From contig NZ_CP042582.1 in assembly GCF_008728835.1 (NCBI RefSeq), positions 2,197,001 to 2,261,000 on the forward strand: 64,000 nucleotides of DNA. Direction: 5' to 3'. Made by a program: the position numbers and the translations under genes. The stretch's first letter is position 1. Every line of letters starts with the position of its first letter. This document shows positions 2,339 through 57,117 of the stretch, one piece after another. The notes under the pieces were generated by a model that did not search any database, was not told the origin of the DNA, and saw only the letters and a list, made by a program, of their open reading frames with translations. The stretch is from Hypericibacter adhaerens (GTDB taxonomy: Bacteria > Pseudomonadota > Alphaproteobacteria > Dongiales > Dongiaceae).

Positions 2339-4795
2339 ATGGTCGAGCACAGCCCTTCGGCCGAGCCCGTCGGCGCTGCCCCGGCGGCGGGGAGAGCGGC
2401 TGCCGATAAGCTGCCGGAAGCCTTCACCGTCGCCTCCGGCCATCTGTTGGGCGGGCGGATGAAGCAGGCCGAGGCCGCCTGCCTCGATCTCGTGAAGGCC
2501 TATCCCGGCAGCGCCAAGGCGTTTCAGCTTCTGGGCGACGTGCTGCAGCGTACCAGCCGCGCCGAAGCGGCGCTGCCGCATTTCGAGCGAGCGCTGCAGC
2601 TCAATCCGAAGTTCGCCGATGCCCATCTGGGCCATGGCAATGCGCTCTATCAGCTGGGGCGCTACGAGGCGGCCGCGGCGGCGTTTCGGCACGCTCTGGC
2701 GCTGCGTCCCGGTTTCGTCGAGGCCTCGCACAACTTGGCCAGCACCCTGCGGGCGCAAGGCAGGATCGCCGAGGCCATCGTCCAGTTCGAGCGCACGCGC
2801 GAGCTCAGCCCGGGCTGGGCGATCGTCCATTGCAATCTGGGTCACGCCTTCCAGGCCGCCGGCCAGACGGAGAATGCCGCCGCCGCCTTCCGGCGCGCGC
2901 TGGAGCTGAAGCCCGACCTGATCGAGGCGCTCAACAATCTGGGGCTCGTGCTCGCGGAGATGGGAAAGCCGGCGGAGGCCGAGGCCTGCTATCGCCGCGC
3001 CATCACGCTCAAGCCCGCCTATGTGGTGCCCTACAACAACCTGGCGAACCTGCTGACGGCGCAGGGCCGGCGCAAGGAGGCGATCGCCTATTACGAGCGG
3101 GCCTTGCGGGTGGATCCCAACCTGCCCGAGCTTCACAACAACCTGGGCAATGCGCTGAAGGATCGCGGCCAGGTCGACCGGGCCGAGCAATGCTACCGGC
3201 GCGCGATCGAGCTCAGGCCCAACTTCGCCGCCGCCCACAACAATCTGGGCAGCGTGCTGCAGATCATGGGCAAGATGGAGGCGGCGCGGACCGCCTATCG
3301 CCGTGCGCTCGCGATCGAGCCGCAATTCGCCGAGGCCTACAGCAATCTCGGCAACACCGTGCGCGAGCTCGGGCGGCTGCAGGAGGCCGAGGAGGCCTAC
3401 CGGCAGGCGCTGGCGCTCAAGCCGGACAGCACCGAGGCCCTCAACAATCTCGCGACCGTGCTCAAGGATGGCGGTCAGCTCCACGAGGCCGCGAGCCTGC
3501 TGCGCCGGGCGCTCGCCTTGCGGCCCGATTTCGTCACGGCGCATCACAATCTCCTGATGACGCTGCAGTACGATCCGGAAACGACGCCGGCCGAGCTGCT
3601 GGAGGCGCATCGGGCGTTCGACCGGCAGTTCGCCGCACCGCTGCTCCCCACCGTGCTTCGTCATCGCAGCGAGCCCGATCCCGGGCGCCGTCTTCGGGTC
3701 GGCTATGTCTCCGGCGACTTCGCGCGTCATCCGGTCGGGCATTTTCTCTCGCGGCTGCTGCCGGCCCATGACCGCTCGCAGGTCGAGCTCTTCGCCTATT
3801 CCGACCGGCTGGGCGAGGACGAGATCACCCATCGATTGCGCGATGCCTGCGACCAGTGGCGGCGCATCTTCGAGTGGAGCGATACCGAGCTCGTGGAGCG
3901 GATCGCGGCCGACGGCATCGACATCCTGGTCGATCTCTCCGGCCACACCGCCGACAATCGCCTGTTGGCCTTCGCGCGCAAGCCGGCGCCGGTTCAGGCA
4001 ACCTGGGCGGGCTATGTCGGCACCACGGGAATGACGGCCATGGATTATCTCATCGCCGACGAGCGCGAGGTGCCGCCCGGCTGCGAGGGCGAGAGCGTCG
4101 AGACGGTGGTCCGGCTGCCGAGCTGCTATGTCTGCTACGCGCCGCCGACCTACGCGCCGGATGTGGGAGCATTGCCCGCGCTCGATGCCGGACATGTGAC
4201 CTTCGGCTGCTTCAACAATCTCTCGAAGCTCAACCCGTCGGTCGCGGCCCTCTGGGCCCGGCTCCTCAACGGCCTGCCGGGGGCGGTGCTGGTGCTCAAG
4301 ACCCACCAGCTCGACGACACGAGGCTGAAGGCCCATGTCGCCGATCTCTTCGCCACACAGGGGCTCGATCCGGACCGGATCCGCTTGTTCGGCAAGTCGC
4401 CGCATCGCGGCCTGCTGCAGGAATATAACCGCATCGACATCGCGCTCGATCCCTTTCCCTATTCGGGCGGCTTGACGACGCTGGAGAGCCTGTGGATGGG
4501 CGTGCCGGTCGTCACCAAGCAGGGCGATCGTTTCGCGGCCCGGCACAGCGCCTCGCACCTGACGGCGGTCGGCCTGGAGGATCTGGTGGCACCCGACGCC
4601 GACGGCTATGTCGAGATCGCCCGCCGGTTGGCCCTGGACCTGCCGCGCCTGGACGCCTTGCGGCACGGGCTGAGGCCTCGGATGGCGGCGTCGCCCGTCT
4701 GCGATGGCGCGGGCTTCGCGCGCGATCTCGAGGCGGCCTACCGGCGGATGTGGCGCGACTGGTGCGGGAGACAGGCGTCACGGGGGCAATCATGA
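2339..4795 (+). CDS. TPR / GT41 (SPINDLY, OGT-like) glycosyltransferase 1
   Basis: This 818-residue protein has two parts. Residues of about 30-415 are roughly ten or eleven tandem TPR units (recurring A-x-x-x-Y-x-x-A-L-x-L-x-P and AHNNLG patterns). Residues of about 430-805 are a GT41 catalytic region like that of O-GlcNAc transferase: VDLSGHTADNRLLAFARKP, WAGYVGTTGM, TFGCFNNLSKLNP and the nucleotide-sugar region GGLTTLESLWMGVPVVTK. The family transfers a sugar from a nucleotide donor to Ser/Thr (or Asn) of proteins chosen by the TPR superhelix. No signal peptide is seen, so it should be cytoplasmic. ATG at 2339 is the first good start. It overlaps its paralogue by 4 bases. Donor and target are unknown. 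Confidence 0.9.
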   Translation: MVEHSPSAEPVGAAPAAGRAAADKLPEAFTVASGHLLGGRMKQAEAACLDLVKAYPGSAKAFQLLGDVLQRTSRAEAALPHFERALQLNPKFADAHLGHGNALYQLGRYEAAAAAFRHALALRPGFVEASHNLASTLRAQGRIAEAIVQFERTRELSPGWAIVHCNLGHAFQAAGQTENAAAAFRRALELKPDLIEALNNLGLVLAEMGKPAEAEACYRRAITLKPAYVVPYNNLANLLTAQGRRKEAIAYYERALRVDPNLPELHNNLGNALKDRGQVDRAEQCYRRAIELRPNFAAAHNNLGSVLQIMGKMEAARTAYRRALAIEPQFAEAYSNLGNTVRELGRLQEAEEAYRQALALKPDSTEALNNLATVLKDGGQLHEAASLLRRALALRPDFVTAHHNLLMTLQYDPETTPAELLEAHRAFDRQFAAPLLPTVLRHRSEPDPGRRLRVGYVSGDFARHPVGHFLSRLLPAHDRSQVELFAYSDRLGEDEITHRLRDACDQWRRIFEWSDTELVERIAADGIDILVDLSGHTADNRLLAFARKPAPVQATWAGYVGTTGMTAMDYLIADEREVPPGCEGESVETVVRLPSCYVCYAPPTYAPDVGALPALDAGHVTFGCFNNLSKLNPSVAALWARLLNGLPGAVLVLKTHQLDDTRLKAHVADLFATQGLDPDRIRLFGKSPHRGLLQEYNRIDIALDPFPYSGGLTTLESLWMGVPVVTKQGDRFAARHSASHLTAVGLEDLVAPDADGYVEIARRLALDLPRLDALRHGLRPRMAASPVCDGAGFARDLEAAYRRMWRDWCGRQASRGQS

Positions 4796-7251
4796 GCGCT
4801 GCGACGACCGAGCCGATCTTCTCGTCCGACACGGCTGCCTTGCTGGCGCAGGCCGCGCATCAGATGCGTGGGGGTTTTCTGACGCAGGCGGAGGACCGGC
4901 TTCGGGCGCTGCTGGTTCTCGATCCGGACCACCCCGAGGCGCTGTGCCTGATGGGCGACGTCCTGCTGCGGACGGGGCGGTACGACACCGCGGTCCGCTT
5001 CTTCGAGAAGGGGATCGAGCGCCGATCCGGCAATCCGGAAGCCCATGTCGGTCTCGGCAATGCCTGGTTTCAGCTGAAAGCGTTTGGTGCGGCCGCGATA
5101 CAGTACCGCCGGGCGCTGGCGCTGCGCCCCGATTTCCCCGAGGCCGGGCACAACCTCGCCAGCACGCTGCATGCGCTGGGCCGCTCGACCGAAGCGATCA
5201 AGGAGCTCGAGCGGATCCTGGACCGGAATCCGGGCTGGCCGGTCGGACATGCCACGCTCGGTCGGTTGCTGCTGGCGGCGGGGCGCTTGGCGGACGCAAC
5301 CCGCTGCTTGCGGCGAGCGCTGGAGCTCCAGCCCGACTCCGCCGCGCTGCTGTCGGATCTGGCGGGAGCCTTGAAAGGGCAGGGAGAGCGCCGCGAGGCT
5401 GAAGATTGCGCCCGCCGCGCGATCGCGCTCAAGCCCGATTTCGTCGAGCCCCTCAATACGCTGGGGACTCTCCTGCTTTCTTCCGGCCGGCATGAGGAAG
5501 CGGCGGCTGCCTTCGAGCGCGCCATCGCCATCGATGCCACGCGGCCCGAGCTGCACAACAATCTCGGTAATGCGCTCAAGGAGCGGGGCGATCTCGAGGG
5601 CGCCAGGGCCTGCTATCAGCAGAGCCTGGCGCTTCGTCCGGATTTCGCCCCCGCCCACAGCAATCTCGGCAACGCGCTGCAGGATCTGCGCCGGTTCGAC
5701 GAGGCTTATACGTCGTACCGGCGCGCGGTGGAGATCGACCCGCGCTTCGACGTGGCCTGGAGCAACCTGGGCAATGCCGCCCGCGAGCTGGGCCGGCTCC
5801 AGGAGGCCGAAGAGGTCTATCGCCAAAGCCTGGCCTTGAATCCCGGCAATGCGGAAGCGCTCAACAATCTCGCGAACGTCCTCAAGGACGATGGCCGCCT
5901 GGAGGAGGCGCTGGCCTGCCTGCATCGCGCCCTGGCGCTCAAGCCGGATTTCAGGACCGCCTACCACAATCTGCTCATGATCATGCAGTACGACCCGACG
6001 ATCCCACCGGGACAGCTGCTCGAGGCGCATCGGGAATTCGACCGGCGGTTCGCGGCCCCCCTGGCCGCGCTGCGCCGCCCGCATCGCAACGCACCGGATC
6101 CGGAACGCCGGCTGCGGCTGGGCTATGTGTCCGGCGATTTCGGGCGCCATCCGGTCGGCTATTTCATGATGCCGGTGTTTCCCGCCCATGATCGCGGCCA
6201 GGTCGAGCTCTTCGCCTATTCCGACCGGCTCGGCAGCGACGAGATCACCGACGCGCTGCGCGCCGGCTGCGATCATTGGTGCCGGATCGGGGATCTGGAC
6301 GAGGCCTCGTTCGCGGAGCGTGTCGCGGCCGACGGGATCGACATCCTGGTCGATCTCTCCGGCCATACGCCGCGCAACCGCCTGCTGGCCTTCGCCCTGA
6401 AGCCGGCGCCGGTCCAGGTCACCTGGGCGGGCTATGCGGGAACCACAGGCATGTCCGCGATCGACGGCTTGATCTCCGACGCCGAGGAGACGCCCCCGGG
6501 CGCCGAAGGCGAGAATGTCGAGGAGACGCTGCGGCTGCCGCAGGGCTATGTCTGCTACGGGCCGCCAGCCTACGCGCCGGAGGTCGGTCCCTTGCCGGCC
6601 CTCGAGGCCGGCCATCTCACCTTCGGCTGCTTCAACAACCTGGCGAAGATCAACGGCCCGGTCGTGGCGCTCTGGGCCCGGCTGCTGCAGCGCCTGCCGG
6701 AAGCGCGGCTCGTGCTGAAGACGCTCCAGCTCGACGAGCCGCGGCTTCGGGAGCGTCTGGCGGATCGGTTCGCCGGGCAGGGCGTCGATCCGGCACGCGT
6801 GAGCCTGCTCGGCCGCTCGCGGCATCCGGGGCTCCTGGCGACCTATAACCAGATCGATATCGCGCTCGACCCCTTTCCCTATTCGGGCGGCTTGACGACG
6901 CTCGAAAGCCTGTGGATGGGGGTGCCGGTGGTGACGAAGCGGGGCGACCGCTTCGCAGGACGCCACAGCAGCTCGCACCTGACGACCGTCGGCTTGCCGG
7001 CGCTCGTGGCCCGCGACGCCGACGAGTATCTGGAGATCGCCTGCGGCCTGGCCGGGGACCTTGGCCGCCTGGCGGCGCTGCGCCGCGAGCTCCGGCCGCG
7101 CATCGCCGCTTCGCCTCTCTGCGACGGCCCGCGTTTCGTCCGCGGCCTGGAGAGCGTCTATCGCCGTCTCTGGCGCCGCTGGTGTGCGTCTAACCCGCCG
7201 GAGACGCTGTTTCGCCGGCCATCCGCGCCGACATCGCATCGTCGAGATTGA
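4792..7251 (+). CDS. TPR / GT41 (SPINDLY, OGT-like) glycosyltransferase 2
   Basis: This 819-residue paralogue of the preceding gene has the same architecture: TPR units over about residues 20-410, then a GT41 domain with VDLSGHTPRNRLLAF, WAGYAGTTGMSAIDG, FGCFNNLAKING and GGLTTLESLWMGVPVVTK. It starts at ATG 4792, overlapping the upstream TGA, so both copies are probably made together. Several catalytic-domain stretches are almost identical at DNA level to gene 1, while the N-termini differ, which indicates a tandem duplication with divergence of the target-selecting part. Its last 62 bases overlap the convergent DUF6065-SapC gene. Confidence 0.9.
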   Translation: MSAATTEPIFSSDTAALLAQAAHQMRGGFLTQAEDRLRALLVLDPDHPEALCLMGDVLLRTGRYDTAVRFFEKGIERRSGNPEAHVGLGNAWFQLKAFGAAAIQYRRALALRPDFPEAGHNLASTLHALGRSTEAIKELERILDRNPGWPVGHATLGRLLLAAGRLADATRCLRRALELQPDSAALLSDLAGALKGQGERREAEDCARRAIALKPDFVEPLNTLGTLLLSSGRHEEAAAAFERAIAIDATRPELHNNLGNALKERGDLEGARACYQQSLALRPDFAPAHSNLGNALQDLRRFDEAYTSYRRAVEIDPRFDVAWSNLGNAARELGRLQEAEEVYRQSLALNPGNAEALNNLANVLKDDGRLEEALACLHRALALKPDFRTAYHNLLMIMQYDPTIPPGQLLEAHREFDRRFAAPLAALRRPHRNAPDPERRLRLGYVSGDFGRHPVGYFMMPVFPAHDRGQVELFAYSDRLGSDEITDALRAGCDHWCRIGDLDEASFAERVAADGIDILVDLSGHTPRNRLLAFALKPAPVQVTWAGYAGTTGMSAIDGLISDAEETPPGAEGENVEETLRLPQGYVCYGPPAYAPEVGPLPALEAGHLTFGCFNNLAKINGPVVALWARLLQRLPEARLVLKTLQLDEPRLRERLADRFAGQGVDPARVSLLGRSRHPGLLATYNQIDIALDPFPYSGGLTTLESLWMGVPVVTKRGDRFAGRHSSSHLTTVGLPALVARDADEYLEIACGLAGDLGRLAALRRELRPRIAASPLCDGPRFVRGLESVYRRLWRRWCASNPPETLFRRPSAPTSHRRD

Positions 7252-8710
7252 GCAGGCCGTTCCAATGGCGGCTCGAGGCGATCTGCGCCTCGATCGCGGC
7301 GAGCCAGCCATTGGCTCGCCAGGCTTCGCGCGTGGCGTCCAGTAATGAGGCGAGGCGGGCGGGATCGATCGTGCGCAGGCCCTCCATGCAGCTGCGCGTG
7401 GCGATGCGCGCCGGCGCGGCGTTGCGCAGGGGCATCAGCAGGCCGCTCTGGGACAGGGTCGTTCCGAAATCGTCCGCCTGCCTCAAGGCGGCGCTGACCC
7501 GCGAGCAGAATTCCAGCCGTTCGCGGCAGAGCGCCGTCATCTCGCCGCGATCGAAGAGTTTGCTCGGGGCCGACGGCGAAAGCTGGGTGGCGGTCTCGTC
7601 GATGCCGAGGATGAGCGTGTCGGCATTGTCCTTGCTGACGATGGTGATGAAGGGATAGCGCCGCGCCGCCGCCGGGATATAGGCGCCGGCGCGCCAGTGG
7701 CCCGAGGCGTCGACATGGAGGTTGCTGTCGGCCATGGCGCCCAGAACGCAGAGGGGGCGCGGCGGATTCATGGCGGCGAAGACGATGGGGTAATGGCGGG
7801 CGGCAGGCGCCAGCTCGCTGATTCCGAGCGGAACCAGCGGGGTCGAGGCGGCGAACCCGTAGTCGCCCTCCTGCAGGCCGAGCTCGGCGTGGGCGAGGCG
7901 GGAGAGCGGCGCGATCTTGCGGAAGAAGGGAGGCAGCCCGAGGGGACCTGCGCCGGGCGTGGATCTCATCGCCGGCGAGCGCCGGTCGGCGAATTCGGGC
8001 AGGCGGAGCTTGATCTGATGATCGGGCGCGCCGGGCCGGTCCTGCATGTTCATGCCGCGGTAATAGCGCTTCTGCCAGCGTTCCTTCTGCTCGGGCGAGC
8101 CGGTCACGTTGAGCCGGTCGCCGAACGAGGTACGCTCCCGCGACCAGCGCTCATAGTCGGCCTTGAGCGACGGGTCGTCGGCGATGTCCCGCACTTCCGC
8201 AGCCACGCCGTCGAGGACGCCGCGCTGGACCGGGAACAGGAAGCAGAACGGCTCGCCCGCCTCGAAGGAGACCCAGTGCCGGGCCCGCGTGAACTTCCAG
8301 TTCATGGTGAAGGTGTAGGGCGCCCAGTCGGTCTCGATCACGCCGCTCAAGGCCGCGATCCCGTCCTTGGGCCGGTTGACGGGGCCGGTGACGAACAGGT
8401 TCCAGCCCGGCTCCGTGCGGAAGATGCCGTGGAGATGGAAGGTCAGCACGCCATGACCGAAGAGGCTGGTCGGCTGCAGCAGCGGTTCCGCGTCGCTTCG
8501 GATATCGATGGCGCCGGGCTCGGCGCCGCCGTTCCAGCAGGCGCTGAAGGCGGCGGGCGACAGCAGCTCCCAGCCATGAGCGTTGGCGATGTTGAGCGGC
8601 AGGCAGCGATAGGCGAAGGCCTGCGCGGTCTCGTCCATCCAGGGCCGCGTCGGCGATGCCGGTTGCGGCACGCCGCTGAGAGGGTCGGTCGCGAAGTAGG
8701 ACAGCTTCAT
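7190..8710 (-). CDS. DUF6065-SapC fusion protein
   Basis: This 506-residue soluble protein has two parts. Residues 1 to about 265 resemble DUF6065 (early FAYRCLPLNIANAHGWEL, later VTGPVNRPKDGI and WKFTRARHWVSFEAGEPFCF). Residues of about 268-500 resemble SapC (LAHAELGLQEGDYGFAAS, PLVPLGISELAPAARHYPIVFA). SapC was first named in Campylobacter S-layer secretion, but its biochemical role is unclear. No signal peptide or membrane segment is seen. The ATG at 8710 (MKLSYFATDP) is preferred over a longer frame to 8950 whose extra residues look non-coding. The gene converges on the GT41 pair and diverges from the repeat-protein operon. Function unknown. Confidence 0.75.
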   Translation of the reverse strand: MKLSYFATDPLSGVPQPASPTRPWMDETAQAFAYRCLPLNIANAHGWELLSPAAFSACWNGGAEPGAIDIRSDAEPLLQPTSLFGHGVLTFHLHGIFRTEPGWNLFVTGPVNRPKDGIAALSGVIETDWAPYTFTMNWKFTRARHWVSFEAGEPFCFLFPVQRGVLDGVAAEVRDIADDPSLKADYERWSRERTSFGDRLNVTGSPEQKERWQKRYYRGMNMQDRPGAPDHQIKLRLPEFADRRSPAMRSTPGAGPLGLPPFFRKIAPLSRLAHAELGLQEGDYGFAASTPLVPLGISELAPAARHYPIVFAAMNPPRPLCVLGAMADSNLHVDASGHWRAGAYIPAAARRYPFITIVSKDNADTLILGIDETATQLSPSAPSKLFDRGEMTALCRERLEFCSRVSAALRQADDFGTTLSQSGLLMPLRNAAPARIATRSCMEGLRTIDPARLASLLDATREAWRANGWLAAIEAQIASSRHWNGLLNLDDAMSARMAGETASPAG

Positions 8711-9132
8711 CTTGCCTGCCAAGCCCTGCTCGCACGAGGGAAGCCCGCGGTCCGCATTTAGCGACAAATCCGACGGCCGAAAAAGAGGAAACGAATCAGG
8801 CCGTCGACCGCTGCGGATGCATCCGCCGAACGGCGGTGCCGGGGCGGGTCCGTCCGCCATGATCGCCCCACCGCGTTCCGGGGTCATGATGCAGTTGCGA
8901 AGAGACCGGCTGCTGTCGCCCCAGGGATCGAAAGCTGACCAAAACTCCACAATCCGCTGCGGTGGGTTGCGGCCGCCTCACCAGCCATGGGCTGTTCTGC
9001 CGCGATATGTGGCGGTTAAGCAGCAGGCGGATGAATTTACCACTTTCTAACATTGTTTAAGGCTGGCCCCCGGAGGCACGGGCAGAGTTGCCGCTACCGA
9101 CTTGTGTCCACAACCGAGAACGGGGAGCCACA
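8711..9132. promoter_or_regulatory. Divergent intergenic region upstream of the repeat-protein operon
   Basis: This 422-base gap separates the minus-strand DUF6065-SapC gene from the plus-strand secreted-protein operon. An AT-richer patch at about 9025-9060 (around AATTTACCACTTTCTAAC) is the likeliest promoter area for the operon, but no convincing -35/-10 pair can be assigned by eye. A GGGGAGCC ribosome site at 9122-9129 precedes the ATG at 9133. No gene is evident inside the gap. Confidence 0.4.
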
Positions 9133-10074
9133 ATGAAGAAAATCCTATACATGGGAGTGGCTGGCTGCGCGCTGTTGATCGCCAATGCGGCCTCGGCGGA
9201 CGTGAATATCCTAGCGAACATCAACAAGACCAAGGATATCACCGTCACCGAGTGGATCACGATCTCCAAGACCGTGAACCTCACCGCCGTGGTTGACATC
9301 ACGCCCGGCAAAGCCGCCGAAGCGACCGGTATCGTCAACCAGACGAACTACGACAACGAGGCCTGCGGCAACTGCGCCGAGAAGATCGATGCCATCATCG
9401 ATTCGATCGACGGCAACACCGGCCTCGTCAACAACAACCAGTCCGCGGGCAACATGAACAACCAGGGCAACGCCGTTTCCGTTGCCTGGGATCTGGATCG
9501 CCCGCCGGGAGCACCGCCGCCGCCGCCGCAGGTTCCGGCGCCGGGCCGCAGCGGTTTCGCCAACTCGTCGGCGGACGTCGACCAGAAGAACGGGTCCTTC
9601 TCGCCGGATGAGTCGACGACCGACATCCAGGCCGCGGCTGTGTTGGGGGATCCGAACATCGTCGACACGATCAACCTGCTGTTCCGCGACGCGATCATTT
9701 CCGGGTCGATCAACAGCAACACGGGCGTGGTTCAGGTCAACCAGTCGGTCGGCAACATGAACAACCAGGCGAACCAGTTCGTGCTGGCGGTCAGCTTGCT
9801 GGGCGACAGCCAGCAGGGCGGCGTGGCGCTGTCGGAAGCCGATCTGGGTCAGGTGACCACCGGCAACTACGCGCAAGAGTCCGACAACGTTCCGACCAGC
9901 GACGACACCACCCTGGTGGGGATCAACAAGAATACGACGATCGAGAATTCGATCAGCTTCAACACCGGCGTGATCGGTGTGAACCAGTCGGCGGGCAACA
10001 TGTCGAACCAGGCCAACAACGTCTCCGCGGCGGTGGTGGTGGTCGGCAGCGGCAGCCCTCCGGGCGCACCGTAA
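9133..10074 (+). CDS. Secreted three-repeat Asn/Gln-rich protein A (candidate Fap-like amyloid subunit)
   Basis: This 313-residue protein has a signal peptide (MKKILYMGVAGCALLIANAASA, cleavage near residue 22), so it is exported. Three long repeats lie near residues 92-114, 192-214 and 272-295, each fitting N-x-G-[IV]-x-x-[VI]-N-Q-x-[AV]-G-N-M-x-N-Q (the first repeat diverges slightly), and are joined by variable acidic linkers. Short Asn/Gln motifs such as NQTNYDN recur between them. Three imperfect repeats with linkers is the layout known for FapB and FapC amyloid subunits. Unlike its paralogues it has a CxxC pair (C78, C81) and a Pro-rich linker near 123-138. Amyloid function is inferred from architecture and operon context, not from recognised sequence identity. 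Confidence 0.65.
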   Translation: MKKILYMGVAGCALLIANAASADVNILANINKTKDITVTEWITISKTVNLTAVVDITPGKAAEATGIVNQTNYDNEACGNCAEKIDAIIDSIDGNTGLVNNNQSAGNMNNQGNAVSVAWDLDRPPGAPPPPPQVPAPGRSGFANSSADVDQKNGSFSPDESTTDIQAAAVLGDPNIVDTINLLFRDAIISGSINSNTGVVQVNQSVGNMNNQANQFVLAVSLLGDSQQGGVALSEADLGQVTTGNYAQESDNVPTSDDTTLVGINKNTTIENSISFNTGVIGVNQSAGNMSNQANNVSAAVVVVGSGSPPGAP

Positions 10075-10092
10075 GAGGAAGGAGAACCAGTC

Positions 10093-11046
10093 ATGAAAAA
10101 AGCTCTTCTCGCGACTGCCGGCTCGGCGCTCGCCCTGGTGCTGCTTTCCTACAGCATGCCGGCCTCGGCGGACGTCGACGTCCATGTGACCGTCAACAAG
10201 ACGAAGGACATCACCGTCAGCGAGTTCATCACGATCTCGAAGACGGTGCTGATCGACGTCACCACGAACGTCACCTATCACTCGGCGGCGGAAGCTGACG
10301 CGATCGTGAATCAGACCAACAACGACAACACGGTCACGCACACCGTCATCCAGCTGAAGAACGCTCCGGACTCCGACGAACCGCCGCCGGAACAGCAGCT
10401 CAACAACTTCGGGCTGCGCAAGGTGGCGTCGATCACCAACTCGATCAACACCAACACCGGCATCGTGAACGTCAACCAGGACGTCGGGAACATGAGCAAT
10501 CAGGGCAACCAGGTCGCCCTGGCGGTCTCGACCCCGGCGAACACCGGTAACCAGAACGCGCGGCCGGTGCTGACCAACTCGCAGTCGGAATCGGATCAGT
10601 CCAACTACGACAACCATGTCGTGGAGATCGAGCATCCGAATCCGGAGACCGACTTCTTCACCAGCCCCTACAACGAGTCCGCGTCGATCGACGGCTCGAT
10701 CAACGGGAACATCGGCGTCGTCAACGTCAACCAGAACGCCGGCAACATGAACAACCAGGCCAATTCCGAGGCCCTGGCGGTTGCCCTCGATCTGGCTGGC
10801 GTGGCCCTGTCCGAGGCGGCCCTGGGCCAGGTGAACACCGACAACGCCGGCAGCGACGAAACCGGCAGCGGATCCGCCGGCGTCTTCGAGGCCGGGGTGA
10901 ACAAGCTGGCTTCGGCGACCGGCTCCCTGAACGGCAACACCGGAATCGGTGGCGTCAATCAGTCGGCGGGCAACATGGCCAACCAGGCCAACACCTTCTC
11001 GCTCTCGTTCATCGACGCGGGCGGCGGTGTCGGTTTGGTCCCATGA
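10093..11046 (+). CDS. Secreted three-repeat Asn/Gln-rich protein B (candidate Fap-like amyloid subunit)
   Basis: This 317-residue paralogue lies 18 bases after protein A. The signal peptide ends near SMPASA (residue 26). An N-terminal block (VNKTKDITVSEFITISKTV) is shared with A and C. Long repeats fall near residues 117-140 (NTGIVNVNQDVGNMSNQ), 202-225 and 278-301, with short motifs NQTNNDN, DQSNYDN and GQVNTDN ahead of each. There are no cysteines and few aromatic residues; the protein is rich in Asn, Gln, Ser, Val and Gly, as in beta-solenoid or amyloid-forming secreted proteins. An AGGAAGGAG ribosome site precedes the ATG. Probably a structural subunit of an extracellular fibre. Confidence 0.65.
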   Translation: MKKALLATAGSALALVLLSYSMPASADVDVHVTVNKTKDITVSEFITISKTVLIDVTTNVTYHSAAEADAIVNQTNNDNTVTHTVIQLKNAPDSDEPPPEQQLNNFGLRKVASITNSINTNTGIVNVNQDVGNMSNQGNQVALAVSTPANTGNQNARPVLTNSQSESDQSNYDNHVVEIEHPNPETDFFTSPYNESASIDGSINGNIGVVNVNQNAGNMNNQANSEALAVALDLAGVALSEAALGQVNTDNAGSDETGSGSAGVFEAGVNKLASATGSLNGNTGIGGVNQSAGNMANQANTFSLSFIDAGGGVGLVP

Positions 11047-11072
11047 GCCGATAAGCGGAAAGGAGACAGACC

Positions 11073-12032
11073 ATGAAGAAAGCTCTCTATGCGACCGCCG
11101 GATCGGCCTTGGCTCTCGTCCTGCTTGCTGCCAGCGCGCCGGCCTTCGCCGACGTGAACGCCTTCGCCACGATCAACAAGACGAAGGACATCACGGTCAC
11201 CGAGCAGATCACGATCCACAAGACGGTCACCATCTTCGTCGGCACCCAGTTCACCGACCGCGACATCACGGCCGCGGCCGAGGCGGATGCCCTGCTGAAC
11301 GTGACCAACAGCAACAACAAGGTGGACGGCCAGGACATCAATGTCGACGAGGACGGGAATCCGGTGTCGGATCACGGCGATCCGCCGGGCACCGACTACC
11401 ATATCCAGCTCTCGGCCGTGATCGGCGGCGAGGAAGGTGGTTCCGTCAACAATAATATCGGCGTCTTCGGCTTCAACCAGGACGTCGGCAACATGACGAA
11501 CCAGGGCAACGCGGTCTCCGTTGCCGGTATCTCGAACCTGCCGGCCTTCGCGAATTCCCAGGCGGAAGCCGATCAGTCGAATACCGACAACAGCTCGTAT
11601 GACTTCGAGCGGATCCGGTCAGCCGAAGACGGTCATGTCCTCTCCTTCGAGGACATCCAGGCCGATCACGATCCGACGTCGTTCCAGGTCGGCAAGTCGA
11701 CCCTGATCGACGGTTCGATCAACACCAACACCGGCGTGATCAACGTCAACCAGAACGCCGGCAACATGAACAACCAGAACAACGGCGTGGCACTTGCCGT
11801 CGGTCTGGGCGCGCTGGTGGCGCTGTCGGAAGGCGCCCTCGGCCAGACCAATGCCGGCAACTTCGTGAGCGAAGTCGAGACGGTGAAGACCGATACGATC
11901 TCCGATTCGATCAACGGCAACACCGGCATCGTCAACGTGAACCAGTCGGTCGGCAACATGAACAACCAGGGCAACGTGGTGAGCCTCGCGGCCGTGGCCT
12001 CGGGCGCCATCATCGCGTCGCCTCCGCAGTAA
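11073..12032 (+). CDS. Secreted three-repeat Asn/Gln-rich protein C (candidate Fap-like amyloid subunit)
   Basis: This 319-residue third copy is closest to B in its signal peptide and first block (INKTKDITVTEQITIHKTV). Long repeats lie near residues 126-148, 214-237 and 280-302, each containing G-N-M-[NT]-N-Q; short motifs (NVTNSNN, DQSNTDN, GQTNAGN) precede them. There is no cysteine. The linkers are long and acidic (for example VDEDGNPVSDHGD), compatible with solubility before assembly. Genes A, B and C look like tandem duplications, so they may co-assemble or replace one another. A strong hairpin follows the stop at 12046-12075. The amyloid assignment is inferred from architecture. Confidence 0.65.
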   Translation: MKKALYATAGSALALVLLAASAPAFADVNAFATINKTKDITVTEQITIHKTVTIFVGTQFTDRDITAAAEADALLNVTNSNNKVDGQDINVDEDGNPVSDHGDPPGTDYHIQLSAVIGGEEGGSVNNNIGVFGFNQDVGNMTNQGNAVSVAGISNLPAFANSQAEADQSNTDNSSYDFERIRSAEDGHVLSFEDIQADHDPTSFQVGKSTLIDGSINTNTGVINVNQNAGNMNNQNNGVALAVGLGALVALSEGALGQTNAGNFVSEVETVKTDTISDSINGNTGIVNVNQSVGNMNNQGNVVSLAAVASGAIIASPPQ

Positions 12033-12045
12033 CCGGACCTGATTG

Positions 12046-12075
12046 GGGGAGGGAAGACGATCGTTTTCCCTCCCC
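12046..12075 (+). terminator. Intra-operon hairpin (attenuator or processing site)
   Basis: Arms GGGGAGGGAA (12046-12055) and TTCCCTCCCC (12066-12075) are perfectly complementary. The ten bases between them contain the palindrome ACGATCGT and can extend the pairing with a G-U pair. There is no long U-tract, and the next gene starts only 90 bases on in the same direction. It fits a leaky terminator or an mRNA-stabilising hairpin separating the three large subunit genes from the downstream accessory genes. Confidence 0.6.
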
Positions 12076-12164
12076 TCGACTTCTCGAATTCCTCTACGCC
12101 AGCGGTCTTCAAGTTTCGCCTCGACATTCGTTTAGCTCTTTCGTTGCGAGCCACGGGGTCAGGA

Positions 12165-12956
12165 ATGAAGCGTTTGATGCTCCTTTCTGCTGTCGGCGTA
12201 CTCGCCTTGGCCGTGCAGGCACCGGCGGCGGGCGCGGCCGATCCGGTGGCGACCGTGCTGATGAGCCCGGAGGCGGGCCTGCTGATGACCATGCCCGCCG
12301 GCATCGACGGCGTCGCGTCGGTGGTCAATTCGAGCACGGCCAGCGCGGAAGTCGACGTCGAGGCCGTTCAGAGCCTCGTCGGCAACAGCGTGATCGTCGA
12401 CGGCGGCAACCGCTCGGTCGAGTTCGTCGACAGCGGCAACCTCCTGGCCGGCGTCCTGAGCATCAATCAGGAAGCGGGCAACATGAACCAGCAAGCCAAT
12501 GTGCGATCGATCGCGGTCGCCATGGCCGACGGCGGTTTCGGCGACGTCCAGATCGGCGTCAATACGCTGCAGGAGCTACGCAACAACAGCCTCACCGTCG
12601 GCGGCGTCTCCGATACGAGCGTCACGATCGCCAACAGCTTCAACAACGGCAGCGGCATCGTCGGCATCAACCAGACCGCCGGCAACATGAACCAGCAGCT
12701 CTCCGTGGTGGCGATCGGGATCGGCCTGAATGTCGGACCGGACGCTGTCCAGATCGGCGATACCCAGCTGGGCCAGATCGGCACCGATGCCGACAACCAG
12801 CGCACCGACGACGGGCTGCTGGATACCGGTCACAACAGCCTGACCAACTCCTTCAACGATTTCTCGGGCATCGCCCAGGTCAGCCAGGTCACGGGGGACA
12901 TGAACCGCGTGACCCAGGTGGTCGGCGTCTCCCTGACCACCATGTCCGCGCCATGA
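12165..12956 (+). CDS. Secreted repeat protein D (minor subunit or nucleator candidate)
   Basis: This 263-residue protein has a signal peptide (MKRLMLLSAVGVLALAVQAPAAGA). It shares the repeat type of A-C in a divergent form: GVLSINQEAGNMNQQAN near 96-112, GIVGINQTAGNMNQQLS near 164-180 and a degenerate third copy GIAQVSQVTGDMNRVTQ near 235-251. The N-terminal NKTKDIT block of A-C is missing. It is smaller and lies beyond the hairpin at 12046, so it is probably made in lower amounts. By analogy with FapB it could nucleate or cap fibres; this is inference. ATG 12165, after GGGG, is preferred over a start at 12144. Its stop overlaps the peptidase ATG. Confidence 0.62.
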   Translation: MKRLMLLSAVGVLALAVQAPAAGAADPVATVLMSPEAGLLMTMPAGIDGVASVVNSSTASAEVDVEAVQSLVGNSVIVDGGNRSVEFVDSGNLLAGVLSINQEAGNMNQQANVRSIAVAMADGGFGDVQIGVNTLQELRNNSLTVGGVSDTSVTIANSFNNGSGIVGINQTAGNMNQQLSVVAIGIGLNVGPDAVQIGDTQLGQIGTDADNQRTDDGLLDTGHNSLTNSFNDFSGIAQVSQVTGDMNRVTQVVGVSLTTMSAP

Positions 12957-13648
12957 CCCGCGCCCGCATCCTCGTACTGGCGTCGGCCTTGCTGCTGCTG
13001 GCGTCCGTGACCGAACCCGCCCTTGCGACGGACAGCATTCCGCTCCCGGGCAATACCACCATCCGGGCGCCGGTCACGAGCTATTTCGGGCTGCGATTCA
13101 AGCAGGTCGTGAGGCAGGGCTACGACGTGAGCTGCGGCGCCGCCGCGCTGGCGACCCTGCTGAAGTACTATTACGGGATGGATGTGGGCGAGAAGCAGAT
13201 CATCGAGGAGATCTTCGCCAACAGCACCGACGAGCAGAAGCAGAAGATCAACGCCTACGGCTTCTCGATGCTCGAGCTCAAGCATTACGGTGAATCCCTG
13301 GGGTTCGTCGGCGGCGGCTTCAAGCTCGACAGCGTGGAGAAGCTGGCGAAGCTGCGGGTGCCGGCGCTGACCCTGATTACCGTGCGTGGCTACAAGCATT
13401 TCGTGGTGCTGAAGGGCCTCTATCGGGGCCAGGTCTACATCGCCGATCCCGCCTTCGGAAACCGATCGCGCCCGCTGGAGCGGTTCGCGACCGAATGGGA
13501 CGGCGTCATCCTGGTGCTGGTCAGCGACAAGTTCACAGGGCGCAACGACTTCTCCGCCGACGGCTCCTTGCGGGCGCCGGCGGACGGCGTGCTGCCCCTG
13601 ATCGATCGATATGCGCGGCCGATCACGCGATCGCCGACGGAGTTCTGA
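12953..13648 (+). CDS. C39-family cysteine peptidase (FapD-like)
   Basis: This 231-residue protein has an N-terminal signal or anchor (residues 1-26) and a C39 peptidase domain. Catalytic residues are visible: oxyanion Q55 in RQGYDVSCGAAAL, nucleophile C61, H149 in GYKHFVVLKG and D165 in YIADPAFG. It is a stand-alone peptidase, without the ABC transporter part found in bacteriocin exporters. C39 enzymes typically cut after a double glycine in a leader, and the next gene encodes such a motif. A stand-alone periplasmic C39 peptidase (FapD) is a hallmark of fap operons. ATGA overlap with the repeat-protein D gene implies coupled translation. Confidence 0.85.
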   Translation: MTRARILVLASALLLLASVTEPALATDSIPLPGNTTIRAPVTSYFGLRFKQVVRQGYDVSCGAAALATLLKYYYGMDVGEKQIIEEIFANSTDEQKQKINAYGFSMLELKHYGESLGFVGGGFKLDSVEKLAKLRVPALTLITVRGYKHFVVLKGLYRGQVYIADPAFGNRSRPLERFATEWDGVILVLVSDKFTGRNDFSADGSLRAPADGVLPLIDRYARPITRSPTEF

Positions 13649-13675
13649 CAGACGGGTTCACTCGGGGAGGTTGAG

Positions 13676-14152
13676 ATGTCGCGGAAATGGGCGTGGCTTC
13701 TGGGTGCAGCTTTCCTGTCGGTGGCGGCCATGCCGGCCGGCGCGGACGAGCTCAAGGCCAAATCCCTGGACACACTGACCCAGATGGCGGCGTGGGCAAC
13801 GCCGCTCAATGACGAGCAGATGGGCGAGATGCGCGGCGGCTTCGCGGGCCTCGCTTTCAACGTGATCATGTCGGGCACCATCGAGCATCTGGCGGATCCG
13901 GGAACCGGCGCCAACGGCGTGGCCGGCGCGCCCGATCCGACCGTGACCCAGAGCGACGGCATGGTGAACATCCAGACCGCGATCGGCAATTTCAACGGCG
14001 CGCAGGGCGTGTTCCAGCTCGCGAATCTCGATCACAGCAATTTCAACGTCATCAATCAGAACATGTTCGTGCAGATCGCGATCATCGACGTGGCGAATGC
14101 CGCGAGCATCCCGACCATCCAGACTCTGCTGAACGGTGCGTTCCACAACTGA
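13676..14152 (+). CDS. Small secreted protein with double-glycine leader motif (FapE-position)
   Basis: This 158-residue protein has a signal peptide (cleavage near AGA, residue 23), then LNDEQMGEMRGG at residues 44-55. Relative to the second glycine this places L at -12, Q at -8, M at -7, M at -4 and GG at -2/-1, matching the double-glycine consensus cleaved by C39 peptidases. The remaining part (56-158) is rich in Asn, Gln and Ile (NIQTAIGNFNGAQGVFQLAN, HSNFNVINQNM) and may be a short amyloid-like or beta-helical chain. It is probably the substrate of the peptidase encoded just upstream. A GGGGAGG ribosome site precedes ATG 13676. I do not recognise the family. Confidence 0.62.
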   Translation: MSRKWAWLLGAAFLSVAAMPAGADELKAKSLDTLTQMAAWATPLNDEQMGEMRGGFAGLAFNVIMSGTIEHLADPGTGANGVAGAPDPTVTQSDGMVNIQTAIGNFNGAQGVFQLANLDHSNFNVINQNMFVQIAIIDVANAASIPTIQTLLNGAFHN

Positions 14153-14436
14153 TCGGATCGGGTCGGACGCTGCACGCGGGTGCCACGGCCGGTGAGAAAC
14201 AACGGCCAGGCCCGCCCGAATGCTTCTGCGGTTCGGAGGGGGATTTGACCGATATGTCCTTGTTCAGACGGCGGGCGGCAACCCGAAGCTGGGAGTTCGG
14301 CCTCGGGGCGGACAGTTGTCTGTCGTCCTGGCGCGATCGGGATCCCTTCGCCGCGGACCTCGATGCCGGTCGCGGCGAAGACGGGGCATCGATCCCGAAT
14401 CCCTCCCGAGAGGCACCCATCGGATCAGGATGGGCG

Positions 14437-15903
14437 GTGCAAGGCATGGCACGGCGATCATCGGCGCTGCCCGGGACGGGGCGGCAAGGCGAGGCGGACA
14501 CGCATGGCCGGCGCCGCTGGAGCGCGCTCACGGCCGCGACCTCGATCGCGATCTGGCTGGTGTTCGTCGCGCCCGCGCTGGCCCAGGATGCATCCGGCAC
14601 GGGAAGCGCCAATGCGGGCGCCTCGACCGGCGATATTGCCGCGATGCTGCGGCGCCAGCAGCAGATGATCGACGAGCAGGCGCGCAAGCTCGAGGAACAG
14701 GCGCGGCTGCTGCAGCAGCAGGAGCAGGCGCTGCGTCAGCAGCAGACCCAGATCGACGATCTGCAGCGCCAGTCGGCCGGTGGCGCCACATTCCTCCTGC
14801 CGGCGACAATGGCGATGCCCGACCTCGACACCCAGAACACACCCTATCTTCGCACCGACGAGGTGATCCCCGTGCCGCCCGATACCGGCGAGACGCCGCC
14901 CGCTGGCAGCCCGTCGGGGACGCCGCCCGCGGGCACCGCCCCGTCCGGGACGCCGCCTTCCGGCGGCACGGCGGAAGAGCAGCGTCCGGAATCGGAGCGG
15001 CCGCCGGAGCAGCTGCTGGTCGAGCGGGGCGGCGTGCTCCTGCCGGCCGGCACGCTGCAGCTCGAGCCCAGCATCGAGTACGACTATTATTCGAACAGCA
15101 ACGTGGCGATCAACGGCTTCACCATCTTCGACGCGATCGTCATCGGCAATGTGCGGGTCGACGAGGTCAATCGCAACGTCGTCACCGCGGCGGCGACGGC
15201 GCGCTACGGCGTCACCGACCGCGTTCAGGTCGAGGCCCGCGTGCCCTACGTCTACCGGAAGGACAGCACGACCTTCGGCGTGGGCACGGGAACCCAGCAG
15301 GAGTTCCAGACCGACGGCTACGATATCGGCGACGTGCAGCTCACCGCGTCCTACCAGCCGATCATCGGCGACGGCGCCCTGATCCCCGATACCATCCTGC
15401 GCGTGTTCACGCGCCTGCCGACCGGCCGCGACGCCTTCGGGATCGGCACGGAGGATATCGGCAACAACCGCACGGTGCTCAAGGAGCCGCCGACCGGCAC
15501 CGGCTTCTACGGGGTGGGCGCGGGCTTCACCCTGGTCTGGCGCGTCGATCCGGTGGTGTTCTTCGGCGGCTTCAGCTACACGGGAAACCTGTCCGACGAC
15601 AAGGGTGCTTCCGGCAACATCGACCCCGGCGATACCTACGAGTTCTATGGCGGCATCAACGTGGCGCTGAGCGAGCTGGTCTCGATGAACCTGTCGTTCG
15701 ACGATCAGCTCACCAGCTCGACCACGCAGAACGGCGACAAGGTGGTCAATACGGATTTCACGGATGCCCGCCTGATCCTCGGCACATCCGTGGGCGTCGC
15801 CCCAGGCACCACCCTGACCTTCAATGCGTCGGCCGGCCTCACCGATCAGTCGCCGGACTTCGCCTTCACGATCAGCCTGCCCATCACCTTCTCGATCTTC
15901 TGA
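14437..15903 (+). CDS. Outer-membrane beta-barrel with N-terminal coiled coil (FapF-like exporter)
   Basis: From the GTG at 14437 (AGGA site 14427-14430) the protein has 488 residues. It has a signal segment (LTAATSIAIWLVFVAPALAQ, residues 31-50), a Gln/Glu-rich coiled coil at about 66-112, a Pro/Gly/Ser linker at about 145-190, and a C-terminal region of about 200-488 with alternating amphipathic strands resembling the MetA-pathway/transporter barrel family, ending in Phe as outer-membrane barrels do. Coiled coil plus barrel is the known design of FapF, the trimeric secretion pore for Fap fibres. The frame is open to a TTG at 14245, but those codons are unlike the rest and would bury the signal peptide; ATG 14446 is another option. 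Confidence 0.7.
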   Translation: MQGMARRSSALPGTGRQGEADTHGRRRWSALTAATSIAIWLVFVAPALAQDASGTGSANAGASTGDIAAMLRRQQQMIDEQARKLEEQARLLQQQEQALRQQQTQIDDLQRQSAGGATFLLPATMAMPDLDTQNTPYLRTDEVIPVPPDTGETPPAGSPSGTPPAGTAPSGTPPSGGTAEEQRPESERPPEQLLVERGGVLLPAGTLQLEPSIEYDYYSNSNVAINGFTIFDAIVIGNVRVDEVNRNVVTAAATARYGVTDRVQVEARVPYVYRKDSTTFGVGTGTQQEFQTDGYDIGDVQLTASYQPIIGDGALIPDTILRVFTRLPTGRDAFGIGTEDIGNNRTVLKEPPTGTGFYGVGAGFTLVWRVDPVVFFGGFSYTGNLSDDKGASGNIDPGDTYEFYGGINVALSELVSMNLSFDDQLTSSTTQNGDKVVNTDFTDARLILGTSVGVAPGTTLTFNASAGLTDQSPDFAFTISLPITFSIF

Positions 15904-17510: not shown

Positions 17511-18263
17511 ATGTGGAAGAGTCATAACGAACCGCCGTCCATTCCAAAGGACTGTCGAAATTGTGCGATCCGCGAGGCGACGCTCTGCGGCGCATTGCGC
17601 AGCGATCAGCTCGACATCCTGCAGGAATTCAAGAGTTGCGACCGCATCGTTCCCGCCCATTCCCATCTCTACCGCGCGGGCGAGCGGCTCAACGAGATCT
17701 ATAACCTGCTGAGCGGATGGGTGGCGCTCTATCGGATCCTCGAATCCGGCCGGCGCCAGATCCTGCAGATCGAACTCCCGGGCGCGTTCCTCGGCTACCA
17801 GGCCCGTATCGACGAGCCCATGCTGCACAGCGCCGAATGCATCACCGATGTCGCGGTCTGCGTCTTCCCGCGCCGCGCCTTTCCGGATCTGCTGGACCGC
17901 CATCCGGTGCTGGGTCTGAAGCTGGCCGGCATCATGGCGCAGGACGTCGTCCGCACCCATGACCAACTCACCAATGTCGGCGGGCGCTCGGGCATGGAAC
18001 GCGTCGCTCATTTCCTGCTGCAGCTCTATCTGAGGCTTCGGCATCGCCAGCCGGCGTTGGGCGGCGACTCGCTCGCCTTGCCGCTGACGCAGGAGATGAT
18101 CGGCGACGCGCTGGGGCTGACGCCGGTCCATATCAACCGGATCCTGCGGCAGCTGCGCGAGCGGCGTCTCGTCGTGTTGCACAACAAGACGCTTCAGGTT
18201 CTCGATCTGGAGGGGCTGCGCCGGATGGCCGAGGTGCCGCAGCTCGACCCGGCGGAACTCTAG
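17511..18263 (+). CDS. Crp/Fnr-family regulator with FNR-type N-terminal cysteines
   Basis: This 250-residue regulator has C15-x2-C18-x7-C26 near the N-terminus, plus C110 in the sensor domain, the spacing seen in oxygen-sensing FnrL/FnrN proteins that bind a [4Fe-4S] cluster. The cNMP-binding-like beta-roll covers about residues 40-130, the dimer helix about 133-175 and the winged HTH about 191-240. The recognition helix reads LTPVHINRILRQLR; the Glu of the E. coli FNR E-x-x-S-R motif is replaced by His and the Ser by Asn, so its DNA target is probably not the standard FNR box. ATG 17511 is chosen because GAGGGGA lies upstream and the cysteines then sit at the usual positions. Confidence 0.85.
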   Translation: MWKSHNEPPSIPKDCRNCAIREATLCGALRSDQLDILQEFKSCDRIVPAHSHLYRAGERLNEIYNLLSGWVALYRILESGRRQILQIELPGAFLGYQARIDEPMLHSAECITDVAVCVFPRRAFPDLLDRHPVLGLKLAGIMAQDVVRTHDQLTNVGGRSGMERVAHFLLQLYLRLRHRQPALGGDSLALPLTQEMIGDALGLTPVHINRILRQLRERRLVVLHNKTLQVLDLEGLRRMAEVPQLDPAEL

Positions 18264-56907: not shown

Positions 56908-56960
56908 CGGGCGTCCGGCTCCGGCTTGCAATCGCGGATTGCCTCCCTATGATGGGCGCC

Positions 56961-57060
56961 ACTCAACGGGGTGCCCTTCGGGGCTGAGAGGAGAGACGGG
57001 GCCGTTCCCGCCTCCAACCCGACGAACCTGATCCGGGTCATGCCGGCGGAGGGAAATGAG
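56961..57060 (+). ncRNA. TPP (THI-box) riboswitch
   Basis: Conserved THI-box blocks are present in order: GGGGTGC and GGGGCTGAGAG (pyrimidine-binding arm, CTGAGA at 56984-56989), then AACCTGATCCGGGTCATGCC and GGCGGAGGGAA (pyrophosphate-binding arm, to about 57055). It lies 60 bases upstream of the thiamine binding-protein gene. Thiamine pyrophosphate binding should reduce expression of thiBPQ; whether at transcription or translation is not clear from the short spacer. Confidence 0.93.
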
Positions 57061-57117
57061 CCGCTCTCAGAGAACCGCTCGTCCGCGCACCCTCCGCGTC
57101 ACCAAGGGAGCGACGCG

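What the first reader, a model, noticed from the sequence alone, without database searches (positions are those of the whole stretch)
9133..15903. A Fap-like functional-amyloid operon with unrecognised subunits
Seven consecutive plus-strand genes give four secreted three-repeat Asn/Gln-rich proteins, a stand-alone C39 peptidase with intact Q55/C61/H149/D165, a small secreted protein, and an outer-membrane barrel with a coiled-coil N-terminus. The Pseudomonas fap order is subunits, FapD (C39), FapE, FapF (coiled coil plus barrel), and the last three genes here match that order. The subunits are not recognisable as FapB/FapC by sequence. From memory, fap operons were described mainly in beta-, gamma- and deltaproteobacteria, so an alphaproteobacterial version with three or four subunit paralogues would be new.
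Basis: partly seen in the sequence, partly recalled or inferred. Interest (0 to 1): 0.9.

Follow-up and report, generated by a model that had tools for sequence, protein, structure and literature searches.

The report
Deep-branching Fap amyloid operon, four subunits
Seven neighbouring genes in an alphaproteobacterium are an unusual, apparently early-branching version of the Fap system that Pseudomonas uses to spin amyloid fibres, with four fibre proteins instead of two and a clear clue to what its protease cuts.

Summary
The seven genes are there and form a fap operon without fapA: four three-repeat subunits, FapD, FapE, FapF. All four subunits match FapB/FapC models (best 8.8e-19, below NCBI's naming cut-offs), so they are recognisable. 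The small protein is FapE (profile match 8.7e-12), the barrel is FapF, and a predicted subunit fits one FapC fibre structure (Z 12.3; another FapC structure only 2.2). Alphaproteobacterial Fap is not new in itself: three of 289 sampled class genomes carry canonical-like operons. Unusual are the four subunits in one operon, shared by both genomes held of the genus (94.5% of published clusters have two), and a deep branch in FapD and FapF trees with a Nitrospinae MAG, apart from the other alphaproteobacterial operons. FapE carries a C39 double-glycine leader, LNDEQMGEMRGG|F. A version is in 46 of 47 Fap-clade loci (P1 Gly in 4, Lys/Arg in 42) and 48 of 64 sister-clade loci (Gly in 47). In the sister clade it also occurs in a small, probably FapE-related protein and in 13 of 60 FapF linkers. 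This points to FapE as the substrate of FapD, called unclear in 2017. Cleavage and fibres are inferred, not shown.

The parts
9133..10074 (+). Subunit S1 (313 aa), FapB/FapC-like, three repeats, a CGNC motif before repeat 1
   Evidence: (FapC 4.8e-7)
10093..11046 (+). Subunit S2 (317 aa), three repeats
   Evidence: (FapB 5.7e-8)
11073..12032 (+). Subunit S3 (319 aa), three repeats; predicted model matches the FapC fibre structure 9u4u
   Evidence: (FapB 8.7e-8)
12165..12956 (+). Subunit S4 (263 aa), closest to FapC; third repeat degenerate; overlaps fapD by 4 bases
   Evidence: (FapC 8.8e-19, FapB 1.8e-15)
12953..13648 (+). FapD, stand-alone C39 peptidase with signal-like N-terminus, Q55/C61/H149/D165
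   Evidence: (FapD 3.1e-44)
13676..14152 (+). FapE, short form (158 aa)
   Evidence: no family hit on its own; profile-profile match to FapE 8.7e-12 with four relatives, 2.7e-7 with the genus mate only
13805..13840 (+). Double-glycine leader motif in FapE, residues 44-55 LNDEQMGEMRGG, predicted FapD cut after G55
   Evidence: cleavage is inferred
14446..15903 (+). FapF, outer-membrane transporter (frame open from 14245)
   Evidence: 5.6e-47; 5o67 4.2e-36
14626..14781 (+). FapF N-terminal coiled-coil helix
   Evidence: model residues 54-105, pLDDT over 90 in its core
15052..15894 (+). FapF barrel
   Evidence: Foldseek 5o67_B 1.5e-23

Best explanation
This is a fap functional-amyloid operon without fapA, from a deep Fap lineage, with four paralogous subunits. 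The products go through Sec to the periplasm (inferred from signal-like N-termini). FapD, a periplasmic C39 peptidase, removes a leader from FapE after the double glycine MRGG|F; this lets FapE start or license export (inferred). FapF (a trimer in Pseudomonas, inferred here) passes the unfolded subunits out; outside they fold into stacked three-layer FapC-like units and polymerise (inferred). S4, next to fapD, is the most FapC-like subunit; S1-S3 share an extra conserved N-terminal segment and are probably co-subunits or regulators of fibre make-up (inferred).
For: Family models: FapB/FapC for all four subunits, FapD 3.1e-44, FapF 5.6e-47. FapE by profile-profile comparison, probability 97.5%, E 8.7e-12, leader aligned to leader. 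S3 model against FapC fibre 9u4u: Foldseek probability 1.00, E 3.6e-3, Z 12.3, rmsd 2.8, 149 of 150 residues, next row 4.5. A subunit profile from this genus alone hits the FapC chains at 1.7e-4. FapF fold: 5o67_B E 1.5e-23. Same operon in the genus mate. Window and genus mate fall on the side of the FapBC-bearing loci in the FapD tree (99/98) and FapF tree (100/99). Leader: FapE is the only one of the seven proteins with it, in 2 of 2 species; 46 of 47 Fap-clade and 48 of 64 sister-clade loci, against 197 of 5926 other ORFs. In the sister clade 13 of 60 FapF proteins have the Arg form in their first 260 residues, against 35 of 1083 control ORFs of 300-700 aa, and 15 of 63 loci have it on a small protein upstream of fapD, against 70 of 5327. 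FapD's cysteine is needed for FapC secretion, and FapE lacks its N-terminus by mass spectrometry (PMC5557850, section 8 read).
Against: All scores are below NCBI's equivalog cut-offs. N/Q-rich repeats inflate scores (HMMER bias 29.4 against score 24.3). The S3 model has mean pLDDT 53.5 and its 16-row alignment holds 11 FapB/C rows from other genera and one from the Nitrospinae MAG; a second FapC structure, 9nqd, matches it poorly (Foldseek probability 0.20, Z 2.2). With the genus pair alone the FapE match covers only 62 N-terminal columns. In most Fap-clade FapE the P1 residue is Lys or Arg, which a classical double-glycine peptidase would not be expected to cut; no convincing FapD change tracked this. 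The motif was derived from FapE itself and the best of several ORFs per locus was taken. 16 of 64 sister-clade loci gave no motif. The small upstream protein is probably a distant FapE relative, so it is weak as independent evidence. The window's own FapF has no such motif. No fibril, cleavage or expression data exist.
Confidence: 0.85

Rival explanations
1. The conserved LxxxELxxxRG[G/R/K] stretch of FapE is not a protease site but a helix that docks FapE on FapF or FapD; FapD acts on something else or as a chaperone.
For: P1 is Lys/Arg in 42 of 46 Fap-clade motifs; the published FapD target was left open; the small upstream protein that shares the motif is probably a FapE relative, so shared descent can explain it.
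Against: The Arg form of the motif also occurs in 13 of 60 sister-clade FapF proteins, against 35 of 1083 control ORFs; the FapD cysteine is needed for secretion (PMC5557850); the position pattern -12, -8, -7, -4, -2 fits the recalled C39 leader consensus.
Confidence: 0.3
2. The system is a pilus or adhesin exporter of the Fil type or of the sister FapD/FapF clade rather than Fap; the repeat proteins are soluble adhesins.
For: FilB and FilC models also hit (2.3e-34 and 2.7e-15); the sister clade has D, E-like and F genes but no FapBC in 63 of 64 loci by the profile used.
Against: FapD and FapF models score higher than FilB and FilC; both trees put it on the side of the FapBC loci; the subunits match FapC by sequence and fold.
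Confidence: 0.06
3. Only S4 is the amyloid; S1-S3 are capsule- or S-layer-like surface proteins that use the exporter.
For: S4 scores best against FapC (8.8e-19 against 4.8e-7 to 1e-7 for S1-S3), lies next to fapD, and its relative is the one seen next to fapD in the Nitrospinae contig; S1-S3 share an N-terminal segment that S4 lacks.
Against: S3 itself models onto the FapC fibre fold; all repeats share the N/Q/G pattern.
Confidence: 0.25

Closest known systems
Pseudomonas fapABCDEF operon (Dueholm 2013, Rouse 2017/2018)
   Same: Order subunits-D-E-F, three-repeat subunits, periplasmic C39, coiled coil plus barrel, FapE between D and F
   Different: No fapA among the seven genes; four subunits rather than FapB and FapC; FapE 158 aa rather than about 250; FapE leader ends in GG rather than GR/GK; FapF barrel only 27% identical to 5o67
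Fap operon of Thermodesulfobacteriaceae (L109, L168) and the Nitrospinae MAG contig (L091)
   Same: Short FapE (163-170 aa); RGG leader in L109 and L168; FapF 36-47% identical
   Different: L109 and L168 have two FapBC genes and their FapF frames (336 and 321 aa) show no coiled coil by eye; L091 has RGK and its contig ends next to the S4-like gene, so its subunit number is unknown
Canonical-like alphaproteobacterial fap operons (L040, L041, L043)
   Same: Same class; FapBC, D, E, F present
   Different: They branch among the beta/gamma-type operons in both trees, two FapBC genes, RGK/RGR/HGK leaders
Sister FapD/FapF clade without FapBC (relation to FilB/FilC systems not tested)
   Same: FapD, FapE-like and FapF homologues
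   Different: No FapBC in 63 of 64 loci; leader RGG, also on a small upstream protein in 15 of 63 loci and in 13 of 60 FapF proteins

Membership tests
Fap functional-amyloid system | FapB/C-type subunit(s) with about three imperfect repeats | tested here: met
Fap functional-amyloid system | Periplasmic C39 peptidase FapD with catalytic residues | tested here: met
   periplasmic location inferred from the signal-like N-terminus
Fap functional-amyloid system | FapE between FapD and FapF | tested here: met
   profile-profile 8.7e-12 with four relatives, 2.7e-7 with the genus mate alone; the single sequence hits no FapE model
Fap functional-amyloid system | FapF barrel with N-terminal coiled coil | tested here: met
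Fap functional-amyloid system | At least four fap homologues clustered within 5 kb gaps, in order (A)BCDEF | tested here: met
   seven consecutive genes; clustering criterion from PMC6173800, section 6, order from PMC3792158
Fap functional-amyloid system | Subunits form amyloid fibres outside the cell | not testable with these tools
   needs fibrillation and microscopy
NCBIfam FapB/FapC/FapD/FapF equivalogs (naming models) | Score above NCBI's curated cut-off | tested here: not met
   best FapC 68 of 195, FapB 57 of 190, FapD 151 of 330, FapF 161 of 700 bits; so not filed as those equivalogs. In a phylum sample 7 of 398 genomes pass for FapC and 21 match
C39 double-glycine substrates | Leader with hydrophobic -12, -7, -4, acidic -8, Gly -2, Gly/Ala -1 | tested here: inconclusive
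   LNDEQMGEMRGG in FapE fits all but -8, which is Gln here; -8 is Glu in 33 of 66 non-redundant relatives. Consensus recalled, not from a call
C39 double-glycine substrates | Cut after the double glycine by the cognate peptidase | not testable with these tools
   needs N-terminal sequencing
Fil putative pilus system (FilB/FilC) | FilB and FilC best among models | tested here: not met
   FapD and FapF score higher

The most novel reading that the evidence does not exclude
FapD is a leader peptidase and FapE its substrate: FapE carries a conserved C39 leader whose original end is Gly-Gly, kept in this deep lineage, in Thermodesulfobacteriaceae and in the sister FapD/FapF clade, and changed to Gly-Arg/Gly-Lys in the Pseudomonas-type branch, which hid it. 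In part of the sister clade the same peptidase also matures a second, FapE-like small protein and cuts the FapF linker. The four subunits here make a mixed fibre whose make-up can be tuned.
Probability: 0.45. Interest if true: 0.75.

Novelty: new variant of a known kind. Interest (0 to 1): 0.56.

Why it matters
FapD is needed for Fap fibre export in the Pseudomonas system, but its substrate was described as unclear in 2017. An operon whose FapE ends its leader in a plain Gly-Gly gives a one-experiment test of that question. The deep branch and four subunits also depart from the picture of Fap as a nearly uniform two-subunit, mainly vertically inherited system, and offer new natural subunits to compare with the FapC structure.

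Tried and rejected
Covariation of FapD residues with the P1 residue of FapE: columns differ between the groups but could as well follow descent, and I saw no clean change in the one independent contrast (L091, Lys), so dropped.

Its profile matches short FapE beyond the leader (probability 88.9%, E 2.4e-6), though hardly canonical FapE (16.4%). I lowered the novel case from 0.50 to 0.45 and raised the docking-helix rival from 0.25 to 0.30 for this.

Naming the organism: Stella was considered, but the published Stella genomes are 5.83, 5.83 and 5.34 Mb (PMC6687932, whole text), not 5,865,246 bp. Hypericibacter is a recalled guess from genome size and two complete genomes in the genus, not verified.

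Promoter and terminator scan: one sigma-70-like site, on the minus strand, 1.1 expected; 7 terminator-like, 5.3 expected; uninformative.

Not-in-print searches: FapC+FapF+alphaproteobacteria, 0 papers; FapC+Alphaproteobacteria, 3 papers, none on Fap by title and abstract start; Fap system/amyloid with alphaproteobacterial names; C39/double-glycine/amyloid/FapE and FapE+FapD (30 of 124 listed). I judged these by titles and abstract starts. Papers opened: PMC3792158 (parts 1-2 of 5), PMC6173800 (passages, section 6), PMC5557850 (passages, section 8), PMC12822426 (passages), PMC12392863 (passages, section 2.1), PMC6173795 and PMC5135000 (passages), PMC6687932 (whole). GG/GA motifs in FapE and FapF were already noted in PMC5557850, and a double-glycine motif in FapF in PMC5135000. 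No preprints or supplements were searched.

Rows dropped: 15 Burkholderiaceae loci of genera already represented from the FapD tree (100 of 115 loci kept); 36 of 112 from the FapF tree (those 15; L032, broken by stops; L044-L046; 17 relatives of kept loci, for speed), 76 kept. The four long-branch loci L039, L044-L046 lack FapBC and had no motif.
Full report
What is there. Seven plus-strand genes fill 9133-15903. The genome is one contig of 5,865,246 bases with one match to the FapD model and four matches to the subunit profile, all here. The one other genome held of the genus has the same seven genes in the same order. In the order, 2 of 17 genomes match the subunit profile, both from this genus; in a class sample, 4 of 385, the other three being weak matches in genomes with canonical-like fap operons.

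Identity of the genes. NCBIfam gives FapB/FapC for all four subunits (best E per protein 4.8e-7, 5.7e-8, 8.7e-8, 8.8e-19), FapD 3.1e-44 and FapF 5.6e-47, all below NCBI's naming cut-offs; FilB and FilC score lower. Pfam gives C39-type peptidase families for the protease and nothing above cut-off for the rest. The small protein hits no family alone, but a five-row profile of its kind matches a 21-row FapE profile at probability 97.5% and E 8.7e-12 over 133 columns; with the genus mate alone the match is 93.3%, 2.7e-7, over 62 N-terminal columns. None of the seven matches a FapA model; the rest of the genome was not searched for one. Loss of fapA is among the commonest variants (PMC3792158, parts 1-2 of 5 read).

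Structure. An AlphaFold2 model of S3 has low mean confidence (53.5) with the repeats at about 60-80. Its best Foldseek match is the FapC fibre of Pseudomonas UK4 (9u4u, probability 1.00, E 3.6e-3), and VIA-align 2 gives Z 12.3, rmsd 2.8 over 149 of 150 residues; the next rows are a CsgA fibril at 4.5 and SufB-SufC-SufD chains, and the other FapC structure, 9nqd, gets only 2.2. Of the 16 rows behind the model, 12 come from other genomes. A profile of this genus alone hits the two solved FapC sequences at 1.7e-4 and 2.0e-4, with a large composition bias. The FapF model shows a signal helix, a coiled-coil helix, a linker of low confidence and a barrel, best matched by FapF 5o67_B (E 1.5e-23); the sequence alone hits FapF at 4.2e-36.

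Subunit number. The 2025 survey reports 1172 clusters, 94.5% with two fapBC genes (PMC12392863, section 2.1 read). Among my 47 Fap-clade loci 38 have two, three have three, three have one, and three have four: the window, its genus mate, and L079, a locus with two FapD genes. S1-S3 share a conserved N-terminal segment that S4 lacks. The Nitrospinae MAG has an S4-like gene beside FapD at a contig end and a second subunit-like gene on another contig.

Placement. A scan of named genomes with a FapD alignment kept the best 80 of 586 relatives, and the pattern list itself was capped, so counts below are of loci near this FapD, not a census. The FapD tree (100 of 115 loci) splits into 36 rows, 32 with FapBC and four long-branch loci without, and 64 rows with no FapBC except L116 (99/98). 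The window, its genus mate and the Nitrospinae contig L091 group at 100/99; a link to Thermodesulfobacteriaceae is weak (81/27). The FapF tree (76 of 112 loci) gives the same split and puts window plus L091 (100/100) outside all other rows of the Fap side (95/81), with Thermodesulfobacteriaceae next to the remaining FapBC operons, among them the three alphaproteobacterial ones. Both trees are midpoint-rooted for drawing, so 'deep' rests on taking the sister clade as outgroup. Three other members of the window's own family were found to have FapF genes, and these fall in the sister clade. Horizontal transfer is a fair inference but not proved, and the MAG contig could be misbinned.

The FapE leader. 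FapE carries LNDEQMGEMRGG|F (residues 44-55), LSDNQMGELRGG|Y in the genus mate; no other protein of either operon has the pattern. Across 115 loci the best-scoring stretch in the ORFs just downstream of FapD fits the pattern in 94: 46 of 47 Fap-clade loci (P1 Lys 27, Arg 15, Gly 4), 48 of 64 sister-clade loci (Gly 47, Ala 1) and 0 of 4 long-branch loci. Any match in the first 130 residues occurs in 197 of 5926 other ORFs (3.3%). Many Fap-clade loci are close relatives; at 60% identity 66 FapE remain, with Leu/Met at -7 and Gly at -2 in all (required by the pattern), Arg at -3 in 58 and Phe/Tyr at +1 in 57. A stricter test, a score above the 99.9th percentile of 5765 control ORFs, is passed by 56 of 115 loci, the window among them; the scoring matrix left out the locus tested but not its relatives. 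In the sister clade the Arg form also occurs on a small protein upstream of fapD in 15 of 63 loci that have such an ORF (13 RGG, 2 RGR; 0 of 27 in the Fap clade; control 70 of 5327 ORFs) and in the first 260 residues of 13 of 60 FapF proteins (2 of 47 in the Fap clade; control 35 of 1083). The small protein is probably a distant relative of short FapE, so only the FapF occurrences argue independently for a processing signal, and they are a minority. In the Pseudomonas system the FapD cysteine is needed for secretion, the mature FapE N-terminus is missing by mass spectrometry, and the target was called unclear, with GG/GA motifs already noted in FapE and FapF (PMC5557850, section 8; PMC5135000, passages). 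The contribution here is the aligned leader, its presence in nearly all Fap-clade loci examined, and the Gly versus Lys/Arg difference at P1.

Mechanism, shown and inferred. Shown by sequence: homology and order of the parts, catalytic residues, leader. Inferred: Sec export, cleavage, FapF-borne secretion, amyloid. The role of S1-S3 is the least certain.

Judgement. A new variant of a known system: ordinary in kind, unusual in subunit number and branch, and useful because it makes the FapD substrate question directly testable.

Noticed in passing
L029, L031, L036, L093, L094, L099 and others: A sister clade of FapD/FapF loci without FapBC, in Alpha-, Beta- and Gammaproteobacteria and Geobacteraceae, has in some loci up to three proteins with a double-glycine-type leader (small FapE-like protein, FapE-like protein, FapF linker).
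   Followed up: partly
L034:4-1815; L116:1200-2444: Next to sister-clade genes lie proteins with N/Q repeats (QQNNG units, 603 aa; a four-repeat protein in Roseomonas rubea that matches the FapBC profile), so this clade may also export amyloid-like fibres.
   Followed up: partly
L173 (G756:C145): The Nitrospinae MAG has a second C39 gene with a 208-aa gene that looks FapE-like before it and an N/Q-repeat protein, besides an S1-S3-like subunit.
   Followed up: partly
window 2339-7251 (+) and 7193-8950 (-): Two tandem TPR/glycosyltransferase-41 genes and a DUF6065-SapC gene lie upstream of the operon; in L028 a TPR protein of the same look, a DUF6065-SapC gene and a Crp-type regulator (window 17511-18263) are also near it.
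   Followed up: partly
L079: An unnamed relative carries two FapD genes and four FapBC genes with one FapF found: possibly a duplicated fap operon sharing one transporter.
   Followed up: no
window 9133-10074, residues 78-81 of S1: S1 of both species has a CGNC motif; a C-terminal CXXC is reported for FapC (PMC5135000, passages).
   Followed up: no
window 56957-57072: TPP riboswitch (Rfam RF00059, 62.5 bits).
   Followed up: no
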